Positions 257 through 16,701 of a stretch of DNA of 26,671 bases are shown piece after piece; the first letter of the stretch is position 1, and each line of letters opens with the position of its first letter. The notes beneath the pieces were generated by a model, which was not told where the DNA came from, ran no database searches, and worked only from the letters and a program-made list of their open reading frames with translations. This DNA is from a virus. Position numbers and translations under genes: made by a program. The stretch is taken from the IMG/VR virus record IMGVR_UViG_3300033146_000641, positions 1 to 26,671 of that record; one strand, given 5' to 3'.

Positions 257-712
257 ATGAGTCAAATAGCAGGTATGGATACAAATGATTTAGACTTATT
301 AGTCAATCAGCTCACTAATAATTATTCTATTGATCAGTTATACCCTATTATAGCTACTTCATTAGGGTATGAGGAAACTCCACCTACTATAGAGGAATTT
401 ACAGATAGTGATGAATTCCTAGGTCAAATATTCTGGGATAGTAAGAAAAATAAATCATCCCTATATTCCGTATGGAGAGGTGCTCTAAAAGAAATCTACC
501 CTAACCCATTCTTCTCTCCATATATCGAAGTATGTCTATCAGGAGCAATCGGTACGGGTAAAACAACTATAGCTAAGATAGGTGCTTTATATGATCTATG
601 TAGGTTACTCTTACTTAAGGAACCTCAGTATAAATATAATCTCATTCCTACTACTATCATAGAATACGCTATCCTCAATGTCATGTCACAGCTGGTGCTG
701 CAGAAGATGTAA
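257..712 (+). CDS. Terminase large subunit, N-terminal ATPase part (frameshifted)
   Basis: This is the first part of the DNA-packaging motor ATPase. The Walker A motif is visible as SGAIGTGKTT near residues 95-104, followed by a helix and the segment IEYAILNV, which matches the usual strand after Walker A in large terminases. After that the frame runs into nonsense (MSQLVLQKM) and stops at 710-712. The true continuation lies in another frame: removing one copy of the tandem ATGTC at 678-687 gives NVTAGAAEDVIFSEIVEWF and joins it to the next entry. The repaired protein would be 602 residues, close to T4 gp17 (610). No strong ribosome-binding site precedes the ATG; a TATAAATC box lies about 20 bases upstream. 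Confidence 0.88.
   Translation: MSQIAGMDTNDLDLLVNQLTNNYSIDQLYPIIATSLGYEETPPTIEEFTDSDEFLGQIFWDSKKNKSSLYSVWRGALKEIYPNPFFSPYIEVCLSGAIGTGKTTIAKIGALYDLCRLLLLKEPQYKYNLIPTTIIEYAILNVMSQLVLQKM
678..687 (+). repeat. 5-bp tandem duplication (ATGTC x2) breaking the terminase frame
   Basis: ATGTC occurs twice in a row at 678-682 and 683-687. Deleting either copy fuses frame 2 to frame 1 and restores the expected sequence AILNVTAGAAEDV across the join. The codons at 680-682 and 685-687 are both GTC, so a 5-base ribosome hop between identical codons would have the same effect. Confidence 0.85.
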
Positions 713-6237: not shown

Positions 6238-7677
6238 ATGAGTTTAAATATTGAAAAACGTCTTGAATATGAAGCAGAATCATATCGTCGTGATTATGGC
6301 TCACTTATTGAGCAAGTCGGTGAGGAAATGGAAACTCGGTATGAAGGTCGTTATTCCTTCAGTACTTTTGATGAGGTAGCTCTCGGTCGCTATGCTCAAA
6401 CTTGGGAAAGTTTCCTTCCTGTCTTTGAATCTGATATGACCTCACGTGATAGCCTGGGTGATATTCTGAAAGTAGGTTTGGACTTGGTTGCTCTACAGTA
6501 TGCCACTCTACCTATTCAGCATCTTGCATCAGTACAGCCTCTATCTGAGGAAGCTGGTGTTGTTTATTATCGTCGTGCTATCGCTACTTCTGATCGTGCT
6601 GGTATCTCTAAAGGTGACATCCTTCTGAATTCTACTGGTAAGTTAGGTGCTGGTCTACCTGATTACGCATCAGAAGAAATTATTGATGAGTCACAAAGTA
6701 TTGTTGATAATGGTGGTAACCCATCAGCTGGTCCATATACTTTTGCTCTACCTGCTCCTATTCGTAGTAGGACTCTCAATATTAATATTGCTGGTAAGAT
6801 CAAAGGTATCGATGATGGTGACGGTCATATCTTTGGTGTAGGTATTGACCCTGACAACTCCAGTATCGATTATGAGACTGGTGCTGTAGTTGTTGTTTTG
6901 ACTGATCCAGTTGGTTCTGGCTTAGCTATTGGTGATACTATCACTATTATCTTCTCTCAGAATCTTGTTAGTTCAACTGAGATTCCTGGATTTCGTTATG
7001 ACTTAGTTGGTAAGGTCATGACTGTTAAGTATCATCTCTTACAGTCCCAGTATTCTTCTCTGGCTAATTATGTAGTTAAACGTCGTTTCGGTAAGACTCT
7101 GTCTGAAGATGTCGCTCGTGATGCTGTAGCTCAGATTAACGGTGCTGTTCTCATGTCAGCTATTAAGAAACTACGTACTGCTGCTATTAAGAATGAAACT
7201 AATTATAGTTTCTCAACTCTTAGTTGGGCAGGTGTAGCACCTTCTGGTGTATCTGATATTGATCATCGTCGTACTTTTACTGATTTGGCTGAGACTGCTG
7301 CTTCTAAGATTGAAGATATGTCTGGTCGTTCAGCGATTACTTTCATGATTATAGGTCAGACTGCTCGTCAGATTTATAGTTCACTTGGTTTTAAGGGTGA
7401 ACGTAAAGCTGTGCCTGGTCCATATCTGGCTGGTTATTTTGAAGGTGTTCCTGTCTATTATGCTCCTCTGTCAGTTCTCCCTGCTAATGAAGTCCTTTAT
7501 GGTTATCGTGGTTTACAGTGGTTTGAGAGTCCTTTGGTTTATGGGCCATTCCTGCCTACTACTGTAGTTAAGACTGCTGGTAATCCTAATGTCTTCTCTG
7601 AAGCTTATGGAGTTGCTCATGGTGCAGCTATGGATAGTGTAGTTCCTGAGTTTGTTGTTCGTGGTAAGATTACTTGA
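6238..7677 (+). CDS. Major capsid protein
   Basis: A 479-residue protein directly after protease and scaffold, with a very strong AGGAGG site and expression-type codon use (CGT for Arg, CTG/CTT for Leu). The C-terminal two thirds read as a HK97-fold capsid protein: ATSDRAGISKGD near 116-127, KYHLLQSQYSSLANY near 264-278, RSAITFMIIG, and the late GVPVYYAPL and YGPFLPTT stretches. Residues of about 165-243 form an extra beta-rich domain with DDGDGHIFG and SSIDYETGAV; a closely similar domain occurs in the tail sheath protein of this phage. The N-terminal 60-70 residues are probably removed on maturation, and PVFE-S at 61-65 is one candidate site. A strong terminator follows. Confidence 0.88.
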   Translation: MSLNIEKRLEYEAESYRRDYGSLIEQVGEEMETRYEGRYSFSTFDEVALGRYAQTWESFLPVFESDMTSRDSLGDILKVGLDLVALQYATLPIQHLASVQPLSEEAGVVYYRRAIATSDRAGISKGDILLNSTGKLGAGLPDYASEEIIDESQSIVDNGGNPSAGPYTFALPAPIRSRTLNINIAGKIKGIDDGDGHIFGVGIDPDNSSIDYETGAVVVVLTDPVGSGLAIGDTITIIFSQNLVSSTEIPGFRYDLVGKVMTVKYHLLQSQYSSLANYVVKRRFGKTLSEDVARDAVAQINGAVLMSAIKKLRTAAIKNETNYSFSTLSWAGVAPSGVSDIDHRRTFTDLAETAASKIEDMSGRSAITFMIIGQTARQIYSSLGFKGERKAVPGPYLAGYFEGVPVYYAPLSVLPANEVLYGYRGLQWFESPLVYGPFLPTTVVKTAGNPNVFSEAYGVAHGAAMDSVVPEFVVRGKIT

Positions 7678-7693
7678 TAGTAATTAGTTCCTC

Positions 7694-7740
7694 AGCTGTA
7701 GTGGGTATAGTTTAGTTATGCCCACTACAGCTTCTTTATT
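7694..7740 (+). terminator. Rho-independent terminator after the capsid gene
   Basis: AGCTGTAGTGGG (7694-7705) pairs perfectly with CCCACTACAGCT (7721-7732). The stem extends about four more pairs around a small TTTAG loop. A T-rich tail (TCTTTATT) follows. Confidence 0.8.
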
Positions 7741-7752
7741 ATTGAGTTAAAT

Positions 7753-7760
7753 TATAAATA
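7753..7760 (+). promoter_or_regulatory. T4-type late promoter box
   Basis: An exact TATAAATA, the T4 late promoter consensus, lies 37 bases before the ATG at 7798 and just after the capsid terminator, where a new transcript would have to start. Confidence 0.5.
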
Positions 7761-7797
7761 TTATTTATAGTTTAATTGAATTGTAAGGGAAATCATT

Positions 7798-7968
7798 ATG
7801 TTTATAAATTATAATTTTGAATCTAATAATAGAAATTGCGTATTCTTTAATGTCATAGATTATACATGCTCTGTAGGATGTCTTAAAGCAAAAGTAATTA
7901 AGAATTCTAGATGCCCCTTTATAGAAAAAGATAAGAAACAGGAAAATTGTCCGTGTTTCACTAAATAG
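7798..7968 (+). CDS. Small cysteine-rich protein (56 aa)
   Basis: ATG at 7798 follows GTAAGGGAAAT (a usable AAGGGA site) and the frame ends at TAG 7966-7968. The protein has six cysteines in the order C14, C24, C28, C39, C50, C52. Key stretches are YTCSVGCLKAK and SRCPF, then ENCPCF. The spacing suggests a small metal-binding (probably zinc) fold. A late-promoter box sits just upstream and a structured non-coding region just downstream. I do not know a function. Confidence 0.65.
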   Translation: MFINYNFESNNRNCVFFNVIDYTCSVGCLKAKVIKNSRCPFIEKDKKQENCPCFTK

Positions 7969-8281
7969 ATAGTATAATTTATTTTACCCCTCAATGTGAA
8001 ATCATATTACCTGCCGGAATGATTTCACTCTTCATCAAGAGTGGGGTAGGGAAGTATGCCCGGCTTCCCTACTCCACTCCCTTTCTATAAGTTATTAATA
8101 GAAATTAAGGAATAGGTAAGCGGAGATCTATTCTTTAATCAGATAGGTGGGGAGAGACTTTTCTCCTTTCACTCTTCCCACCTATCGTTTAATAAGATAA
8201 AATGATTCACATGATAGTTATAAATAAATTATCGATATAGTAGATAAAGTAGATTTTAATAAGTTAAATGGGGTTAACAGG
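7969..8281 (+). ncRNA. Hairpin-rich non-coding region, possible structured RNA
   Basis: This 313-base stretch has no convincing ORF but holds four strong hairpins: GTGAAATCAT 7996-8005 with 8019-8028; a 16-bp stem 8039-8054 with 8064-8079 (one G-U); AAGGAATAG 8107-8115 with 8128-8136; and a 15-bp stem 8142-8156 with 8172-8186 (one G-U). CACTCTT 8026-8032 can instead pair with AAGAGTG 8037-8043, which would break the first two stems, so alternative folds are possible. A late-promoter box follows at 8219. The last hairpins may act as terminators for the 7798 gene. Whether it is a stable RNA is not shown. Confidence 0.5.
8219..8226 (+). promoter_or_regulatory. T4-type late promoter box
   Basis: An exact TATAAATA 55 bases before the ATG at 8282, downstream of the hairpin array. 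Confidence 0.5.
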
Positions 8282-8482
8282 ATGGTTAATATAGATATTC
8301 AGAAGATCATTGAGAAGTTGAAAGCATTGTCAGATAATTGTGAGATAGAGAAGCATGATAATATGCTATGTAATGATTGTGGGTATACCTGGGAAACTTC
8401 AGTTAAACACCTTCCTGATAACCCAATCAAGGAGCCTGTCTGTCCAAGATGTGGTAGTCAGAATACTATGAGATTGAAATAA
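8282..8482 (+). CDS. Small zinc-ribbon protein (66 aa)
   Basis: The protein has a helical N-terminus (residues 1-25) and then a zinc ribbon: CNDCGYTW at 30-37 and CPRCGSQNT at 54-62, giving a CxxC-18-CxxC-like arrangement. The aromatic and glycine residues after each knuckle are typical of ribbons that bind nucleic acid or protein. There is a TATAAATA box upstream. The function is unknown; a transcription or late-gene accessory role is possible but cannot be read from the sequence. Confidence 0.7.
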   Translation: MVNIDIQKIIEKLKALSDNCEIEKHDNMLCNDCGYTWETSVKHLPDNPIKEPVCPRCGSQNTMRLK

Positions 8483-8543
8483 TTCAGTGTGTATGGTAAT
8501 TAAGTTACTTAATTATTGGTTATAGTGTAGTATAGTAGATATT

Positions 8544-8551
8544 TATAAATA
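8544..8551 (+). promoter_or_regulatory. T4-type late promoter box
   Basis: An exact TATAAATA 36 bases before the ATG at 8588, the third such box within 800 bases. Confidence 0.5.
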
Positions 8552-8587
8552 ATCTTGTTAGTTAATAATTCAACGTAGGAGGTAGTT

Positions 8588-8959
8588 ATGAGTAAGTCAT
8601 CAAGTTTAATTAAATTAATTGAGGAATCAGTTAATAATGATATTCGAAATATCATACGTAGTGTTAAAACTATGGAAGAAATGCTAAAGAAAAATTATGA
8701 TGATGATTATGAAGATATTGTCGGTAATATTTTATATGATATAGCTGATGAGTCACCAGTCACTGAATTGAAAGATGAACGTGGTCAGAAACTGGGTAAA
8801 CCTGATAGTAAATTAAAATCAATTATTAAGAAGATAACAAGTTCATTAAAGAAACTGCCATCAGGTAACTTATCAATATTTGCTCACGAAATTGCCAAAA
8901 TCTATGGTATAGGAGAAAGAGAATTAGGCGATGGATTCTCTGGATGGGATAACTGGTAA
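8588..8959 (+). CDS. Unknown small protein with putative capsid-targeting N-terminus
   Basis: The 123-residue product begins MSKSSSLIKLIEESV. I-E-E before S at residues 11-14 fits the (I/L)-x-E cleavage rule of T4-type prohead proteases, with the glutamate at residue 13 as in three other proteins here. The remainder is mostly helical and charged and ends GDGFSGWDNW. It has AGGAGG before the ATG and its own late-promoter box, so it is probably well expressed late. A strong hairpin follows the gene. I do not recognise a family; head-packaged cargo or a core protein is my inference from the N-terminus. Confidence 0.75.
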   Translation: MSKSSSLIKLIEESVNNDIRNIIRSVKTMEEMLKKNYDDDYEDIVGNILYDIADESPVTELKDERGQKLGKPDSKLKSIIKKITSSLKKLPSGNLSIFAHEIAKIYGIGERELGDGFSGWDNW

Positions 8960-9002
8960 TATAGTTAGCAAATAGGGGAGTGTAATTCTCCTATTTCACA
9001 TA

Positions 9003-9060
9003 GGAGTGGGGAAGAGTTTTTGCCATTTACATTTTTCCTCCTTTTTCTCTTCTCCACTCC
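9003..9060 (+). terminator. Long-stem hairpin, probable terminator
   Basis: GGAGTGGGGAAGAG (9003-9016) pairs with CTCTTCTCCACTCC (9047-9060), 14 bp with one G-U, around a 30-base pyrimidine-rich loop. ATTTATTATTT follows. The stem sequence resembles the one at 8039-8079. A weaker hairpin lies just before it at 8970-8996. Confidence 0.55.
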
Positions 9061-9096
9061 ATTTATTATTTATCAAAAGGCATACCCTATATAATT

Positions 9097-9729
9097 ATGA
9101 ATAAATCAAAAGAAATATTACGTTTTATTGCTGAAGCAAAATTGCCTAAGGAAATTGCTAGGGAATTTAAATTTGCTCCCTTCTTATTTCCAGACGATAA
9201 GTTGTCTATTAAAGCTATTGCTCAGAATCCTGAAAGATCTTATGAAGACAGAGAAGTATATACAGAATTTAATTTTTCTAAGAAACCTTTAGATGGAAAA
9301 ATTATTAATAACCAATATTCAACTTGGTTAACTGGTGAGAAATCAATTGAATTAGGGACTATGTTAATAGAAGCTGGTAATGATGCTCTCACTAGGAGTA
9401 GACTTAAGAATTATGAAACTATTGAATTACTAGCTGCAGCTAATTCAGCTCAGAGGGGATTATATAAAGAAGTCATTATTACTCGGCAGAATGATGAAAC
9501 CCCAAATGACTATGGACCTGGGTTTTACTATTATACTTTTTATTATAAAGCAGATGATGATCTATATTCAAGAAAGATAAAGGATGTAGTTTATTATTTT
9601 TCTCCATTTAAGGATGAATTCAATAAGCAGATAAAGAATTTTACTTTTGGTATCCCATATAAATTAGTTAATTTTAGTTATGATTTAATCAAATCTAAAT
9701 TTGATAAATCTAGTAAAGATTTTGAGTGA
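9097..9729 (+). CDS. Unknown protein (210 aa) with putative capsid-targeting N-terminus
   Basis: It begins MNKSKEILRFIAEAKLPKE. F-I-A-E before A closely resembles the cleaved leader of T4 internal proteins (a short peptide ending near FIAEA), and the glutamate is residue 13. The mature part is mixed alpha/beta and rich in Tyr, Phe and Lys, with YGPGFYYYTFYYK near residues 138-150 and a basic C-terminus (DLIKSKFDKSSKDFE). At 210 residues it is the largest member of the set. I recognise no enzyme motif. Position among small genes after the capsid protein and the leader suggest an internal head protein. Confidence 0.72.
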   Translation: MNKSKEILRFIAEAKLPKEIAREFKFAPFLFPDDKLSIKAIAQNPERSYEDREVYTEFNFSKKPLDGKIINNQYSTWLTGEKSIELGTMLIEAGNDALTRSRLKNYETIELLAAANSAQRGLYKEVIITRQNDETPNDYGPGFYYYTFYYKADDDLYSRKIKDVVYYFSPFKDEFNKQIKNFTFGIPYKLVNFSYDLIKSKFDKSSKDFE

Positions 9730-9738
9730 GATAAATAA

Positions 9739-10056
9739 ATGAAATTAAATTCCCTTAACACACTACTGCAGATTGGGAAAGTAATTAATGCTCGTGATTA
9801 CAATCTAGTACTAGATGGAGATCTTAAACCATCTAGGAATACTTATAGACTACTCAGTCGTAGTAATAAAGAATTAGGTATCATAGAATTACATAATGAT
9901 TACCTCCGAGTATTAAAAGGTAAAGATACTAAGATATTTAAAAATGATATAAAATCAAATAGCGATATCATTGAATTAGTAGATAATATTATAAAATATA
10001 TGAATGAAACAATGGCTAATTCAATTATTAATAAAATAGAAGGAGTTGTCAAATGA
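9739..10056 (+). CDS. Unknown small protein (105 aa)
   Basis: The ORF begins MKLNSLNTLLQIGKVINARD and lies 9 bases after the previous stop. Its stop overlaps the start of the next gene by four bases (ATGA), which suggests translational coupling. The N-terminus is a short amphipathic helix, loosely like the other small proteins but without an L-x-E site. The middle reads as beta hairpins (NKELGIIELHNDYLRVLKGK). I do not recognise a family. Confidence 0.65.
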   Translation: MKLNSLNTLLQIGKVINARDYNLVLDGDLKPSRNTYRLLSRSNKELGIIELHNDYLRVLKGKDTKIFKNDIKSNSDIIELVDNIIKYMNETMANSIINKIEGVVK

Positions 10057-10496
10057 GTGTTTATTTCAAAGGCAGGAATATGTCGGAAAAGGAATATTTA
10101 GAAGCACGTAAGAGGGATCAAGAAGAGTATCTGAAAATCCTTAATAGTAAACCTGGAAATCCTGTTATTCCCAGCAATGACACTGATGAAGTCAAGACTG
10201 ATGAAGTTAAGACTAATGAAGCTGATACTAATGAAGTCAAGACTGATGAAGTTGGTACTAATGAAGTCAAGACTGATGAAGTTGGTACTAATGAAGTCAA
10301 GACTGATGAAGTTGGTACTAATGAAGTCAAGACTGATGAAGTTGGTACTAATGAAGTTGAATACACCTCAGATCAAATATATGATATGCGGAAGGATGAA
10401 CTTATTGAATTAGCTTCTAAATTAGAGATTGATTCTGAAGGTTATAAAGAAGAACTTCAAAAGAGAATTATCAATCATCTTGGTTTAGCAGTCTAA
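10053..10496 (+). CDS. Pentapeptide-repeat linker protein with C-terminal SAP-like domain
   Basis: The 147-residue protein has three parts: a charged helical N-terminus (1-43, EKEYLEARKRDQEEY); twelve tandem pentapeptides of the form T-D/N-E-V-K/G (about 44-103), acidic and probably extended; and a C-terminal SAP/HeH-like helix-extended-helix (about 108-147, MRKDELIELASKLEID then EELQKRIINHLG). SAP-type modules usually bind DNA or sit in nucleic-acid proteins. AAGGAG precedes the start, which overlaps the previous stop by four bases. The nearly perfect 30-nt repeats make copy-number change likely. YLE-A at 16-19 is a possible protease site. Function unknown; a DNA-tethering role in head or host is conceivable. 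Confidence 0.72.
   Translation: MSVYFKGRNMSEKEYLEARKRDQEEYLKILNSKPGNPVIPSNDTDEVKTDEVKTNEADTNEVKTDEVGTNEVKTDEVGTNEVKTDEVGTNEVKTDEVGTNEVEYTSDQIYDMRKDELIELASKLEIDSEGYKEELQKRIINHLGLAV
10182..10361 (+). repeat. Tandem 15-nt repeat, 12 copies (30-nt higher-order unit)
   Basis: Twelve in-frame 15-base units encode T-D/N-E-V-K/G. The middle eight form four near-identical 30-base copies (TNEVK-TDEVG), pointing to recent expansion. The array also opens a meaningless reading frame on the other strand. Confidence 0.9.
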
Positions 10497-10513
10497 TCAT
10501 ATAGAGTTATTCA

Positions 10514-10741
10514 ATGAGTAATGAAATTGAGGTACACAAAATTACTGTTAATTCTAAATGTCCTAGGTGTCAAAAATATTTTAAAATTAAATTAAGTATT
10601 AATATTCTTGATAAGAATAAGTTATTTAGAAAATATTGTGATAGCTGTCATAACATAATTAAACATAATTTTGAATATCCTGTTAAACTAAATGTAATTA
10701 ATAAAGAAATAGGTTTTACCCATAAGATAAGTGATCTTTGA
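10514..10741 (+). CDS. Small zinc-knuckle protein (75 aa)
   Basis: The protein has two CxxC knuckles, CPRCQKYF at 16-23 and CDSCHNII at 42-49, with basic residues between and after them. This fits a zinc ribbon of the kind that binds nucleic acid or protein. It is the second such small protein in the accessory stretch. The ribosome-binding site is weak. No specific function can be read. Confidence 0.65.
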   Translation: MSNEIEVHKITVNSKCPRCQKYFKIKLSINILDKNKLFRKYCDSCHNIIKHNFEYPVKLNVINKEIGFTHKISDL

Positions 10742-10763
10742 TTATTAGACAAAAGGCGATAAA

Positions 10764-11093
10764 ATGAGTAAATCTAAAGAACTGTTGGATTTCTTAAATG
10801 AATCAGTATTGGTATCAGAATTTTCTAGAGACACTAAATTATCTTTTGAATCGTCATTAAAAACTATTTTTGAAGATAATGATCTATATTCAATCTCAGG
10901 TGATAAAGATAAATTCATTATCAGCAGTGATGGTTATTCATTATCAGTACGTCCATCTGAGAACATAGGTATGGTTATCATTATGAGAGAAGATGGTGAA
11001 GAAGAAGAGATTCCATTTGCTGATCTCTTTAAAACTGTAGATACTGAAGTTAAAGCATTGAATAAATCAGAAGTTACTAGTGATGAGATATAA
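10764..11093 (+). CDS. Unknown small protein with putative capsid-targeting N-terminus
   Basis: It begins MSKSKELLDFLNESVLVSEF. L-N-E before S at residues 11-14 fits the prohead protease rule and again places the glutamate at residue 13. The mature part is acidic, with a predicted beta segment (DKFIISSDGYSLSVRP, then MVIIMREDGEEEEIPFADL). No family recognised. It is followed after three bases by the probable neck gene at 11097. AAAGGCG precedes the start. Confidence 0.75.
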   Translation: MSKSKELLDFLNESVLVSEFSRDTKLSFESSLKTIFEDNDLYSISGDKDKFIISSDGYSLSVRPSENIGMVIIMREDGEEEEIPFADLFKTVDTEVKALNKSEVTSDEI

Positions 11094-11096
11094 TTT

Positions 11097-11612
11097 ATGG
11101 ATGCTTCTGAATTAAAGACTGCTGTAGTTATATCTCAGCCTATAGATGAATCTGAGATAACTGACCCTATAATGGATAGGGCTATTAAGGCTGGTCTTTA
11201 TATATTTAATAAATATCTGCCTAAGAAGAATAGGAATTATATATCAGGTGGTGCATATACTTTATTAGAAGGTGAAAGTTTATTAGAAGTTTATGACCTT
11301 ACAGAAATGTTTACTCCTAATTATGCTTCTCCTGCAAAACATAAAGTAAATGGAAATACTGTACTAGTATTTACACCCTGTTGTTTAGTTACATGCTCTA
11401 ATTATGATCTTGATACTATACCTACAGAGTATGAAGAGATATTTATTAAATTAGTTGGGTTGTATGTTAAATCTTATTGTGCAAATATAAGAAGAACTGC
11501 TACTCTAAGTGATCTTCCCTTTGATTTAAAAGGTGAAGATTTCTATCGTGAGTTTGTTGAAGAATTAGAGAAATTAGAGATTATTCTTCAATCAAAAGAA
11601 ACAGGGTTTTAA
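11097..11612 (+). CDS. Probable neck / head-tail connector protein
   Basis: A 171-residue protein with an N-terminal helical part (DPIMDRAIKAGLYIFNKYLP, 22-41), a middle beta region with three cysteines (VFTPCCLVTC, 111-120) and a C-terminal helical pair ending KLEIILQSKETGF. It is the first gene of the block between head and tail sheath where myoviruses keep neck and head-completion proteins. The call rests on position and general look only; no motif is diagnostic. Confidence 0.45.
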   Translation: MDASELKTAVVISQPIDESEITDPIMDRAIKAGLYIFNKYLPKKNRNYISGGAYTLLEGESLLEVYDLTEMFTPNYASPAKHKVNGNTVLVFTPCCLVTCSNYDLDTIPTEYEEIFIKLVGLYVKSYCANIRRTATLSDLPFDLKGEDFYREFVEELEKLEIILQSKETGF

Positions 11613-11820: not shown

Positions 11821-12144
11821 ATGAGCCATTCAAGAGCTAAATCATTAAGTCAAACTATTGAGAGTTTCCTTAGACGTTTTGAGGATGAGGTGACTGTTAA
11901 GGAGATGCTTGATACTGAGAACGCAGAGATAGAAGATAACGGAGATCATCTTAGTATCACTATACCTATGACTGATAAGAATTGGTCAGTATCTAATGTT
12001 AATGATCTTGCTGATTATTTTAACTCAGTAGGTTTCCACAATACTCATGTTATCAATAACGGTATGGAAATCACTATGAATATCCCTAAGGATAACGAAG
12101 AGTTAATCTCACGTGTCAGGGAAGAATTAGGCATTTCTCTATAA
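11821..12144 (+). CDS. Unknown small protein (107 aa)
   Basis: The product starts MSHSRAKSLSQTIESFLRRF. T-I-E before S at 12-15 is a looser match to the cleavage pattern shared by other small proteins here. The body reads as alternating strands and helices (DHLSITIPMTDKNWSVSNV, then GMEITMNIPKDNEELISRV), like a small alpha/beta fold. It has a strong AGGAG site and is preceded by a structured gap, so it probably begins its own transcript. I do not recognise it. Confidence 0.65.
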   Translation: MSHSRAKSLSQTIESFLRRFEDEVTVKEMLDTENAEIEDNGDHLSITIPMTDKNWSVSNVNDLADYFNSVGFHNTHVINNGMEITMNIPKDNEELISRVREELGISL

Positions 12145-12162: not shown

Positions 12163-12636
12163 ATGAAATTCAAAAGAATATTTATATTAATAATCCTGAT
12201 TTCCGCATGTAGGATTGCCTACGCTGACAATTTATTGATTACACCTAGGCAGATAGTTGATAATTCCAGAACTAATGTCATGGTATCCCTTATAGGATAT
12301 TATCCTGCATTTATTTATCATGTTGTAGATGGTGATACTGTAGATGCAGTAGTACGTATTGGTTTTGAGTTTATCACATATAAGAGATTCAGGATATATA
12401 ATCTTGATACTCCTGAGACATGGAGGCCATCCTGTGATGCTGAAAGAATTCATGGTGAAAAAGCTAAAGAGGAAGCTAAGAGATTATTACTGAATAAATA
12501 TCTTATTATCCGTACTGGATTTGATCAAGGATACTATTGTAGAGAATTAGCTGATATCTACTTACCTGATGGAACTAATTATAGCGATTATATGAAAGCT
12601 AATGGGTTCTCCAAGAGAAATAATTATAAGCAATAA
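12163..12636 (+). CDS. Exported staphylococcal-nuclease-type (SNase) enzyme
   Basis: The 157-residue protein has an N-terminal export signal: basic MKFKR, hydrophobic IFILIILISA, then either a lipobox (ISAC, C16) or a signal peptidase I site after AYA (residue 21). The mature part carries the SNase/thermonuclease active site: VVDGDT at 54-59 (D56, D58), R77 in FRIYNLDTPE with D82, T83 and E85, and R127 in CRELADIYLPDG. These match SNase D19/D21, R35, D40, T41, E43 and R87, so it should be a calcium-dependent DNase/RNase. C91 and C126 could form a disulfide outside the cytoplasm. It lies among probable neck genes, an odd place for a secreted nuclease. Confidence 0.85.
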   Translation: MKFKRIFILIILISACRIAYADNLLITPRQIVDNSRTNVMVSLIGYYPAFIYHVVDGDTVDAVVRIGFEFITYKRFRIYNLDTPETWRPSCDAERIHGEKAKEEAKRLLLNKYLIIRTGFDQGYYCRELADIYLPDGTNYSDYMKANGFSKRNNYKQ

Positions 12637-12639
12637 ATT

Positions 12640-13065
12640 ATGACTTTAATAAATAATTTTGAGGGTATACTGAGTAACTTAAGTAACGTTGCTATCACTA
12701 TCCTAAATAATTTATTTGGAGTGAGGGTAAAGATCTACCCAGTAGAAACTTCTAATATCTATAGTAATGTCTATACTGGTCAGGATGGAGATACAAGTAT
12801 AATATCATCAGAATATCGAGAGTGCTCTATATTATTTACTGGTGATATTTATCAATATTTAAATTCTTCATACTCTGATATAGCTTTTATAGGTGATAAC
12901 TATTGTTTCATAGATCAAAACACTCCTGAATTAAAATCTGGTGAAAGAATAGTTTATACTAGAGAAGATGGTAAGGAAATAAGATTTACAGTTAAGGATA
13001 GATTGCCTATAGGGTTTACCACTGAGATAGTTAAGAAATACAGAATTCTATACATAGAAGAATAG
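12640..13065 (+). CDS. Probable neck or head-tail joining protein
   Basis: The 141-residue protein starts three bases after the nuclease stop. It has a helical N-terminus (about 1-25) and then a beta-rich body with YRECSILFTGDIY near 59-71 and GERIVYTREDGKEIRFTV near 101-118. It reads like a small adaptor, and it sits with the 13071 gene just ahead of the tail genes. There is no diagnostic motif, so the role is inferred from order. Confidence 0.45.
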   Translation: MTLINNFEGILSNLSNVAITILNNLFGVRVKIYPVETSNIYSNVYTGQDGDTSIISSEYRECSILFTGDIYQYLNSSYSDIAFIGDNYCFIDQNTPELKSGERIVYTREDGKEIRFTVKDRLPIGFTTEIVKKYRILYIEE

Positions 13066-13070
13066 GAAAT

Positions 13071-13721
13071 ATGGATACTAATTTCTCTGTTATATCTACT
13101 ACGGTAATAGTTATAAGTAATTTTCTGCAATTATATAAGAAATATTTTCCAAGTATTAATTTTATATTTTCTCAGTCTATTGATTATGAGATTGGATTTA
13201 ATAATAGGAAAAATTGGAAAATATCTAATGATATTTATAATAATATAGATGTAACTCCTGCTCTATTATGGAATAGAGAGCCGTTAAGGATGTCAGAGCC
13301 ATTACTTGATAGAGGCAGGAAAACATCTTATAAGATTTATGATGGTGTAGACCAGGCTGATGTACTAGCATATGCTACTCCTAATTTAGAAATAAAGTTT
13401 GCTTATATAACTAATTCTTTACAGGAATTAGAATTAATAGAAGCTGTATATACTTGTGCTATGCAAGATATAACTTCAATGAAGATAGAATATCCTACAT
13501 TTGGTGAATATTCTTATACAGTAGATTTTAAAGAATTAGATGAGCTTACTATAAATAAAGAGGGTTCTAGTTATTATTTATTAGCTAGTTCAGCTACTAT
13601 ACAAGGAGCGATATTTGTATTAGTAGATAAATATCCAATATTGAAAGATATTGTGACTACTTCGTATAGTAACCTATATCCAAGTACACTTGAGATATCT
13701 AGTATAGATTATACTGTCTAA
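13071..13721 (+). CDS. Probable neck / tail-completion protein
   Basis: A 216-residue protein, AGGA before the ATG, five bases after the previous stop. Notable stretches are PALLWNREPLRMSEPLLDRG near 64-83 and a C-terminal beta/alpha part. Position (last large gene before the sheath, apart from small insertions) suggests a neck or tail-terminator protein. No signature I can name. Confidence 0.45.
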   Translation: MDTNFSVISTTVIVISNFLQLYKKYFPSINFIFSQSIDYEIGFNNRKNWKISNDIYNNIDVTPALLWNREPLRMSEPLLDRGRKTSYKIYDGVDQADVLAYATPNLEIKFAYITNSLQELELIEAVYTCAMQDITSMKIEYPTFGEYSYTVDFKELDELTINKEGSSYYLLASSATIQGAIFVLVDKYPILKDIVTTSYSNLYPSTLEISSIDYTV

Positions 13722-14568: not shown

Positions 14569-16701
14569 ATGGCTAGTCCACAGGTAAGAACTATTGAATA
14601 TGACAGATCCCAACGTGTATCTTCTTATGAAGGCATGTATGGTCTTGTAATTGGAGCATTTGATAGGGGTCCAATTGGTAAAAGAGTCTTTATGACTAAT
14701 TCTCAGCAAGTAGATGCTGTATTTGGTAAACCTAAAGTAGGAAGTGATATTGCTTATTATATACTTCATTCTTTTCTATCTAAATCAAAAAGATGTTGGG
14801 TAGAAAGAGTAGCTGAGGGTGCTTTATATGGTGGAGTGTCTATAGGTGCTGCATTTGACATGGTTATGGGATTACCAGATGGTATCGAAACTATATTCTC
14901 AACTGTCTTAGAATATGGTCGTTGTCACCCTAACACAGTTGAGGTTTACCTTGATACTATTAAGATTGGTTATGATAATGGAGCTGGAGTTATTATCGGG
15001 GATAATATTGATGTAGGTTCTGTTAATTATGAGACAGGAGCTATTACATGTCAGTTCACTCATCCATTACCTAAGAATTCAATTTTATATGCTAAATGGG
15101 GATTTAATAATATTCCTCTAACTTCTGGAGCAGCTGATACTGACGATTATCAGTTTGATAGTCGTATTCTAAATCAGAATATTGCTGGTTCAGCTGGTGT
15201 TTATAGTGATCATCTTGTTCCATTCCCTATTGTTGGTCCAGATGGGACAGTAGCTAGTGCGAATGATTCTACTGTCTTAATCTATGATGATAGCACTCTT
15301 ATTGCTTACACTGATGAAACTGGTAATCTAGTTGATACTGGCACATATCTTGATTCTAGTTCTACTAATAGAGTTGAATTTGGTAATGGTGTTCTTTCTT
15401 TTAATCTAGATTCTGCTTATGTGCCATCTGCTCCTTTAGTAGCTGAGTATCGTTCTTATAAATCTGAGGCATTTATAATTTACGCTGATAATCAGGGTTC
15501 TTGGGCTGATGATTACAGTATCTTAATTGATCAGGTTGATTTTGCTAATAATACTTTTACTATTTCAGTTTATGAAACTCAGAGAAATGGATCTATCATG
15601 AAAGTAGCTTCTTATGTACTTTCTAGAGAACATAAAGTTGATGGATTCAATAATCAGTTATACATTGAGGATAGATTAAATGACAAGTCTAATTACATTA
15701 GAGTATTAGATAATGTCAATCTTAATGAAACTGAAGCAATACCTCAAGACAGTCTTAAACACACTACTTATAGCACTAATGATATCTTTACTCTATCAAG
15801 TGGTGATGACGGGTTTGCACCTTCAGTTAACTCTTATATCAATGTATTGCATACTTTTAATAACCCTGAAGATGTTAAAGTTGATATCATTGTTGACACT
15901 CTCTGTGATAAGAATTTCCAAGTAGAGATGTTGAAATTATGTGATCGTGATTTCGGTGGTCGTGGAGATTGTTACGCTGTATTGAGTGCACCATTTGATC
16001 TTCTCGAGAATAATAATTATCTTAATGAAATTGCCAATTATCGTAAGTATGAATTGAATGTTAATTCTAGTTTTGGTGGTTTGTATAGTTCATTCGTTAA
16101 GATTTATGATGCCTATAATGGCCGTGAGGTATGGATACCTGAATCAGGATTCGTAGCTGCTGCATTCTCTTATACTGCTGATCAGTTTAGTCCTTGGTTT
16201 CCAGCAGCTGGTTGGAGAAGAGGTACGTTACCAGTTCTTGATACCTATCGTAAATTCACTATAGGTGAGAGAGACTTCTTATATGATAATGGAATTAATG
16301 TTCTCCGTTATCGTCCTGGTAAGGGTATTGCTATCTGGGGTAACAAAACTCTGTATGATGATAACTCTGCTCTTAGTCGTGCTAATGTTAGATGGCTCCT
16401 CATCGTTATTGAGAATGCAATTGAGGATTACTTGGATGAGTATGAATTTGAGCTCAATGATCCAATCACTAGAGCACTGATTACATCAGCTGTACAGGGT
16501 TATCTTGATTCTATTAAAGCAAGACGTGGTCTGTATGATTTCGATGTTGTTTGTGATGAAACTAATAATACTCCACAAACTATCGACAACTACGAGATGA
16601 ATGTTGACTACTATGTGCAACCAGTTAAGGATGCTGAGTTTATTTATGGTAGAGCAGTTATCACTCGTACTGGTGTTAAATTTGAGGATGTTCGTATCTA
16701 A
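14569..16701 (+). CDS. Tail sheath protein
   Basis: The 710-residue sheath subunit forms the contractile outer tail. The N-terminus (YEGMYGLVIGAFDRGPIGK, then TNSQQVDAVFGKP) is the standard sheath start. The C-terminal core has INVLRYRPGKGIAIWGNKTL near 576-595, then ANVRWLLIVIENAIEDYL and the last strand FIYGRAVITRTGVKFEDV. Two extra beta-rich domains are inserted near the N-terminus: about 105-180, with SVNYETGAI, closely like a domain in the capsid protein; and about 208-297, with NGVLSFNLDSAYVP, probably a diverged copy. AAGGAG precedes the ATG and a strong hairpin follows. Confidence 0.92.
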   Translation: MASPQVRTIEYDRSQRVSSYEGMYGLVIGAFDRGPIGKRVFMTNSQQVDAVFGKPKVGSDIAYYILHSFLSKSKRCWVERVAEGALYGGVSIGAAFDMVMGLPDGIETIFSTVLEYGRCHPNTVEVYLDTIKIGYDNGAGVIIGDNIDVGSVNYETGAITCQFTHPLPKNSILYAKWGFNNIPLTSGAADTDDYQFDSRILNQNIAGSAGVYSDHLVPFPIVGPDGTVASANDSTVLIYDDSTLIAYTDETGNLVDTGTYLDSSSTNRVEFGNGVLSFNLDSAYVPSAPLVAEYRSYKSEAFIIYADNQGSWADDYSILIDQVDFANNTFTISVYETQRNGSIMKVASYVLSREHKVDGFNNQLYIEDRLNDKSNYIRVLDNVNLNETEAIPQDSLKHTTYSTNDIFTLSSGDDGFAPSVNSYINVLHTFNNPEDVKVDIIVDTLCDKNFQVEMLKLCDRDFGGRGDCYAVLSAPFDLLENNNYLNEIANYRKYELNVNSSFGGLYSSFVKIYDAYNGREVWIPESGFVAAAFSYTADQFSPWFPAAGWRRGTLPVLDTYRKFTIGERDFLYDNGINVLRYRPGKGIAIWGNKTLYDDNSALSRANVRWLLIVIENAIEDYLDEYEFELNDPITRALITSAVQGYLDSIKARRGLYDFDVVCDETNNTPQTIDNYEMNVDYYVQPVKDAEFIYGRAVITRTGVKFEDVRI

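What the first reader, a model, noticed from the sequence alone, without database searches (positions are those of the whole stretch)
12163..12636. Exported nuclease with a complete active site inside the neck gene block
All key SNase residues are kept, and a signal peptide with a lipobox and an AYA cleavage site precedes them. A periplasmic or outer-surface nuclease made late could destroy DNA of superinfecting phages on entry, digest DNA released at lysis, or be carried on the virion. Expression with neck genes hints at a structural or timed role.
Basis: partly seen in the sequence, partly recalled or inferred. Interest (0 to 1): 0.6.

Follow-up and report, generated by a model that had tools for sequence, protein, structure and literature searches.

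The report
Exported nuclease in phage neck genes
A large tailed phage carries, between two of its head-to-tail joint genes, a small DNA-cutting enzyme of a well-known kind that has gained an export signal, so it probably works outside the cytoplasm; similar exported enzymes already occur in some other phages, so this is an unusual variant rather than a new system.

Summary
ORF 12163-12636 (157 aa) is a staphylococcal-nuclease (SNase) fold protein (Pfam above cut-off; PDB Z 13.5). The catalytic residues are intact, and a signal-peptide-like N-terminus is unmatched elsewhere in the window. It lies inside the neck block: the ORF 4 nt downstream folds like T4 gp14/stopper proteins, and gene order matches Yersinia phage YerA41 and Acinetobacter phage Ab1-TPeters, where the flanking genes are adjacent. 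None of 85 related sheath regions has an SNase, so it is an insert. Its nearest relative (57% identity) starts at the window's Met39 and has no signal peptide. The tree puts it in a non-exported phage clade, so export was probably gained on its own branch. Qualifications: the C-terminal SNase helix is missing; lipobox and AYA site are alternatives; codon use and Shine-Dalgarno do not settle start Met1 versus Met39, though the signal features strongly favour Met1. Exported SNases already occur in phages (SPbeta YokF, Sulfurimonas SNW-1), and prophage DNases that block transformation are known. Best reading: a late, Sec-exported nuclease digesting DNA outside the cytoplasm, most likely at lysis. 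Superinfection killing and virion carriage are untested. New variant of a known kind.

The parts
12163..12636 (+). SNase-family nuclease ORF, 157 aa, with N-terminal export signal
   Evidence: Pfam SNase 28.7 bits, phrog_452 E 1e-17; PDB fold match Z 13.5
12163..12225 (+). Predicted signal peptide M1-A21 (MKFKRIFILIILISACRIAYA); SPase I site AYA|D22, alternative lipobox ISA|C16
   Evidence: Strict rule passed by 1 of 292 window starts and 0 of 17,546 random open frames; highest N-terminal hydropathy in the window
12226..12300 (+). Low-confidence linker, residues 22-46
   Evidence: pLDDT about 50 for residues 21-40; no counterpart in the close homologues up to Met39
12277..12279 (+). Met39, alternative or ancestral start; aligns with the start Met of nearest homologue L186
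   Evidence: tblastn alignment 38-157 to L186 5533-5892
12301..12633 (+). SNase OB-fold domain, residues 47-157; lacks the C-terminal SNase helix
   Evidence: aligned to SNase residues about 7-116/122
12334..12336 (+). D58 = SNase D21 (Ca ligand)
   Evidence: alignment
12391..12393 (+). R77 = SNase R35
   Evidence: alignment
12406..12417 (+). D82, T83, P84, E85 = SNase D40, T41, P42, E43
   Evidence: alignment
12541..12543 (+). R127 = SNase R87
   Evidence: alignment
11097..11612 (+). Upstream conserved head/neck-block protein (YerA41 194c orthologue)
   Evidence: 27% identity, E 5e-15; family in 19 ORFs
11821..12144 (+). Small ORF of unknown function, second occupant of the slot
   Evidence: no homologue found in related loci
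12640..13065 (+). Neck stopper/head-closure protein (T4 gp14-like fold, YerA41 193c orthologue), starting 4 nt after the SNase stop
   Evidence: E 3e-7 to 193c; Z 10.2 to P1 connector, 9.8 to T4 neck and phage 812 stopper entries
13071..13721 (+). Conserved neck-block protein (Ab1-TPeters CDS0150 orthologue; tail-terminator position)
6238..7677 (+). Major capsid protein (context)
   Evidence: 41% identity to YerA41 200c; phrog_138
14569..16701 (+). Tail sheath protein (context)
   Evidence: phrog_23 E 1e-67

Best explanation
A phage-type SNase of the compact phrog_452 class has gained an N-terminal signal peptide and linker and sits as cargo between two conserved neck genes. It is probably transcribed late with them. 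The product is exported by Sec, then either released into the periplasm (SPase I at AYA) or lipidated (SPase II at C16). There, and in the medium after lysis, Ca2+ is available and the phage's own DNA, still in the cytoplasm or packaged, is out of reach. It digests DNA outside the cytoplasm: most likely host DNA released at lysis, freeing progeny and lowering viscosity, and incidentally any DNA entering through the envelope. Shown here: family, catalytic residues, fold, position, absence from relatives, nearest homologue without signal. Inferred: export, activity, late timing, role.
For: Family, catalytic residues and fold. Signal-peptide features far beyond chance; no signal in 80 sampled phage homologues or in the closest ones. 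The gene fills a neck-block slot that is empty (8-16 nt) in YerA41, Ab1-TPeters and L164, directly upstream of a stopper gene, with no + strand terminator-like site between about 9.0 and 14.7 kb. YerA41 terminase, protease, capsid and sheath genes are late (PMC7354516). Characterised relatives infect Vibrio, Yersinia and Acinetobacter, so a Gram-negative host is likely. SNase dependence on Ca2+, scarce in the cytoplasm, is established knowledge. Exported SNases or DNases exist in other phages.
Against: The start codon is not independently confirmed: codon usage of codons 1-38 is ambiguous, the nearest homologue begins at the window's Met39, and the Shine-Dalgarno at Met1 is weak. The C-terminal SNase helix is missing. 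Only one sequence of this exported form is in hand, so its conservation cannot be tested. There is no direct evidence for late timing or for any of the roles.
Confidence: 0.45

Rival explanations
1. Envelope DNA-entry barrier: the exported nuclease cuts DNA of superinfecting phages, or other DNA taken up, while it is in the periplasm.
For: Export signal. Prophage-encoded DNases of C. jejuni CJIE1/2/4 are reported to reduce natural transformation (PMC4004267). T4-excluded DNA being cut by host periplasmic endonuclease I is established knowledge.
Against: Exclusion genes are usually expressed early or in lysogens, whereas this gene sits among structural genes. A contractile tail delivers DNA through the periplasm inside a tube, so a free nuclease alone may not reach it.
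Confidence: 0.25
2. Cytoplasmic nuclease: translation starts at Met39, and the enzyme acts on host DNA or in recombination like its non-exported relatives; the upstream reading frame is not used.
For: The nearest homologue L186 starts at the equivalent of Met39; homologues lack signals; codon use of codons 1-38 is weak.
Against: No Shine-Dalgarno at Met39. It would leave a 132-nt gap in a tightly packed stretch. An in-frame signal-peptide-like sequence of this quality is very unlikely by chance.
Confidence: 0.15
3. Virion-borne or neck-associated nuclease, carried on the particle and acting at entry or during assembly.
For: Place inside the neck block, 4 nt before a stopper gene. YerA41 virions reportedly carry many enzymes, nucleases included (PMC7354516).
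Against: Absent from 85 related sheath regions; a Sec signal would take it away from assembly in the cytoplasm; it has no N-terminal tag of the kind shared by neighbouring small proteins.
Confidence: 0.05
4. A recent capture with no selected role, or a degrading copy.
For: Found in one genome; C-terminal helix missing.
Against: The reading frame is intact and residues 39-157 have gene-like codon use. All six catalytic positions are kept. The short C-terminus is shared with intact relatives.
Confidence: 0.1

Closest known systems
phrog_452-type compact phage SNases (Phage NCTB SBV38325.1, Staphylococcus phage IME1354, Vibrio phage 1.031.O NVP1031O_082; nearest is viral contig L186)
   Same: Fold, catalytic residues, short C-terminus; up to 57% identity
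   Different: They have no signal peptide, and those examined sit in replication/accessory regions, or in L186 beside tail genes on the other strand, not in the neck block
SPbeta YokF (annotated nuclease, putative lipoprotein) and Sulfurimonas phage SNW-1 thermonuclease
   Same: Phage-encoded SNase with an N-terminal export signal
   Different: Accessory position, not among neck genes; YokF has a clear LAAC lipobox and a long linker. Neither was placed in the tree; the exported viral SNases that were placed form a separate clade from the window
C. jejuni prophage DNases (CJIE1 dns, CJIE2, CJIE4)
   Same: Prophage-encoded nucleases; the CJIE1 one is called extracellular (PMC4004267)
   Different: Not compared by sequence here; prophage setting; reported effect is on natural transformation
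Yersinia phage YerA41 and Acinetobacter phage Ab1-TPeters structural blocks
   Same: Same gene order from protease to tail tube
   Different: Flanking neck genes are adjacent, with no SNase
S. aureus thermonuclease (Nuc)
   Same: OB-fold and catalytic residues; export by signal peptide
   Different: About 26% identity, and the window protein lacks the C-terminal helix

Membership tests
SNase superfamily (Pfam PF00565) | Score above Pfam gathering cut-off | tested here: met
   28.7 bits vs 21; 29.8 bits
SNase superfamily (Pfam PF00565) | Catalytic residues D21, R35, D40, T41, E43, R87 | tested here: met
   D58, R77, D82, T83, E85, R127
SNase superfamily (Pfam PF00565) | SNase OB-fold | tested here: met
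   Z 13.5 over 107 residues
SNase superfamily (Pfam PF00565) | Ca2+-dependent nuclease activity | not testable with these tools
   needs assay
Full-length S. aureus-type thermonuclease (Nuc) | Complete domain including C-terminal helix | tested here: not met
   Pfam positions 1-75 of 107 only; protein ends near SNase residue 116-122
phrog_452 compact phage SNases | PHROG profile match and clade placement | tested here: met
   E 1.4e-17; tree with L186, NCTB, L189, L182, L185, 95/89 support
Exported (signal-bearing) SNases | N-terminal signal-peptide features | tested here: met
   rule-based test only, no SignalP available
Exported (signal-bearing) SNases | Actual translation from Met1 and export | not testable with these tools
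   needs experiment; codon use and Shine-Dalgarno are ambiguous
YokF-like phage lipoprotein SNases | Lipobox used by SPase II | tested here: inconclusive
   ISA-C16 present, but AYA-D22 equally plausible (sequence)
Exported viral SNase clade (L183, L184, L188, L191, L192) | Common clade | tested here: not met
   window groups with non-exported L186 at 100/98
YerA41/Ab1-TPeters-type structural block | Gene order protease-MCP-neck-sheath-tube with homologous proteins | tested here: met
Phage superinfection-exclusion proteins | Blocks a second infection | not testable with these tools
   needs infection assay

The most novel reading that the evidence does not exclude
A late-made, phage-encoded periplasmic nuclease that turns the infected cell's envelope into a DNA trap for superinfecting phages while sparing the phage's own DNA, created by adding a signal peptide to an ancestrally cytoplasmic phage SNase.
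Probability: 0.15. Interest if true: 0.6.

Novelty: new variant of a known kind. Interest (0 to 1): 0.35.

Why it matters
If export is real, it is a case of a phage re-addressing one of its own cytoplasmic enzyme families to the envelope and placing it in the structural gene block. That would make a simple test possible of whether lytic phages use exported nucleases at lysis or against rivals. The neck-block slot in this phage group is also a place to look for other cargo.

Tried and rejected
(1) A disulphide between C91 and C126 as support for export: dropped, because C91 also occurs in non-exported homologues L182, L185, L186 and L189. (2) Codon usage as proof of translation from Met1: ambiguous. 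(3) L032 looked like an exported phage SNase, but its signal peptide belongs to a separate upstream ORF. (4) Close relatives of the phage by single-protein or MCP-alignment search of viral contigs: none found; the sheath alignment worked. (6) T4-type late promoter TATAAATA: no more frequent than chance. (7) Papers on exported phage SNases and superinfection: nothing direct found.

Full report
What is there. The window is a 26.7-kb virus fragment holding the structural genes of a contractile-tailed phage: terminase, protease, capsid, sheath, tube and baseplate genes, and a long ORF in the tape-measure position. It has no close DNA match in 50,697 phage records. The ORF at 12163-12636 is real at the stated coordinates. 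It scores above the Pfam SNase cut-off (28.7 vs 21 bits), matches phrog_452 at E 1.4e-17, and models as an SNase OB-fold with Z 13.5 to S. aureus nuclease. The catalytic set is intact (D58, R77, D82, T83, E85, R127). The protein stops near SNase residue 116-122, so the last SNase helix is absent, as in other compact phage SNases.

The signal. The first 21 residues, MKFKRIFILIILISACRIAYA, have a basic start, a hydrophobic core and A-x-A before D22. A generic rule for such features passes for this start only among 292 open starts in the window and for none of 17,546 random open frames of the same dinucleotide make-up. The rule was written after seeing the sequence, and no dedicated signal-peptide predictor was available. 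C16 lies in a borderline lipobox (ISA-C), so lipoprotein and soluble periplasmic forms are both possible.

The weak point. The nearest homologue, L186:5536-5889 (57% identity), begins exactly where the window has Met39. Codon use of codons 1-38 lies between that of genes and of off-frame sequence. The Shine-Dalgarno is weak at Met1 (-3.3, random median -2.1) and absent at Met39 (+0.2). A Met39 start would leave 132 nt non-coding in a tightly packed stretch. I therefore favour Met1, at about 0.8, without proof.

Where it sits. Window proteins 11097, 12640 and 13071 are orthologues of neck-block proteins of YerA41 and/or Ab1-TPeters and of many viral contigs. Protein 12640 folds like phage stopper/connector proteins (P1 connector Z 10.2, T4 neck entries 9.3-9.8, phage 812 stopper 9.8). 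In YerA41, Ab1-TPeters and L164 the genes corresponding to 11097 and 12640 are 8-16 nt apart; here the slot holds 11821-12144 and the SNase. Elsewhere the slot is 0.6-5.5 kb and filled with other genes. A profile search of 85 related sheath regions found no SNase. So the gene is cargo inserted in a conserved block, not a neck component. YerA41 terminase, protease, capsid and sheath transcripts are late (PMC7354516), and no terminator-like site on the + strand lies between about 9.0 and 14.7 kb, so late co-transcription is a fair inference.

Where it came from. The tree groups the window with L186 (100/98), then with NCTB, L189, L182 and L185 (95/89), all without signals; signal-bearing viral SNases form other branches. 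None of 80 sampled phage homologues carries a signal. Export was therefore most likely gained on this branch by an N-terminal addition in front of the old start.

How it probably works. My commitment is a Sec-exported nuclease acting outside the cytoplasm, where Ca2+ is available and the phage's own DNA is not exposed, most likely on DNA released at lysis (0.45 for the whole statement). A barrier to entering DNA comes next (0.25); it has a precedent in C. jejuni prophage DNases that reduce natural transformation (PMC4004267). A cytoplasmic enzyme from Met39 (0.15) and a virion role (0.05) are less likely.

Compared with what is known. Exported phage SNases are not new: SPbeta YokF is annotated as a putative lipoprotein nuclease and has a clear LAAC lipobox, and Sulfurimonas phage SNW-1 has a thermonuclease with a signal-like N-terminus. 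Viral contigs L191 and L196 carry signal-bearing SNases beside phage DNA polymerase or primase genes. What differs here is the origin from the non-exported phage clade and the place in the neck block. The literature searches found no description of this arrangement, but they cover only open-licence papers.

Noticed in passing
window 2762, 8588, 9097, 10764, 13768, 25175 (ORF starts); also L124, L138, L149: Many small ORFs share an N-terminal tag like M-x-K-S-x-x-L-L-x-x-L-x-E (e.g. MSKSKELLDFLNES, MNKSKEILRFIAEA). Relatives have similar tagged sets (L138 has at least seven ORFs beginning MSLA(G/R/S)N(I/V)I). It resembles a capsid-targeting sequence and may mark head-internal cargo.
   Followed up: partly
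window 257-712 and 928-2070: The large terminase is split: its ATPase part ends at 712 and the reading continues in another frame to the nuclease part, which matches terminases. Sequencing error, frameshifting or a real break cannot be told apart.
   Followed up: partly
window 7694-7732 and 8039-8079: Two strong hairpins (18 and 17 pairs), each followed by a T-rich tail, in the roughly 600-nt gap after the capsid gene; likely terminators or processing sites.
   Followed up: no
window 10053-10496: ORF with repeated TNEVKTDEVG-like units, a low-complexity acidic repeat.
   Followed up: no
window 7677-11097: A 3.4-kb run of about eight ORFs between capsid and neck genes; the six searched (8282, 8588, 9097, 9739, 10514, 10764) had no homologue in 85 related loci.
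   Followed up: partly
L191 and L196: Signal-bearing SNases next to phage DNA polymerase or primase genes in viral contigs; with L183, L184, L188 and L192 they are exported viral SNases that mostly end in a WC motif.
   Followed up: partly
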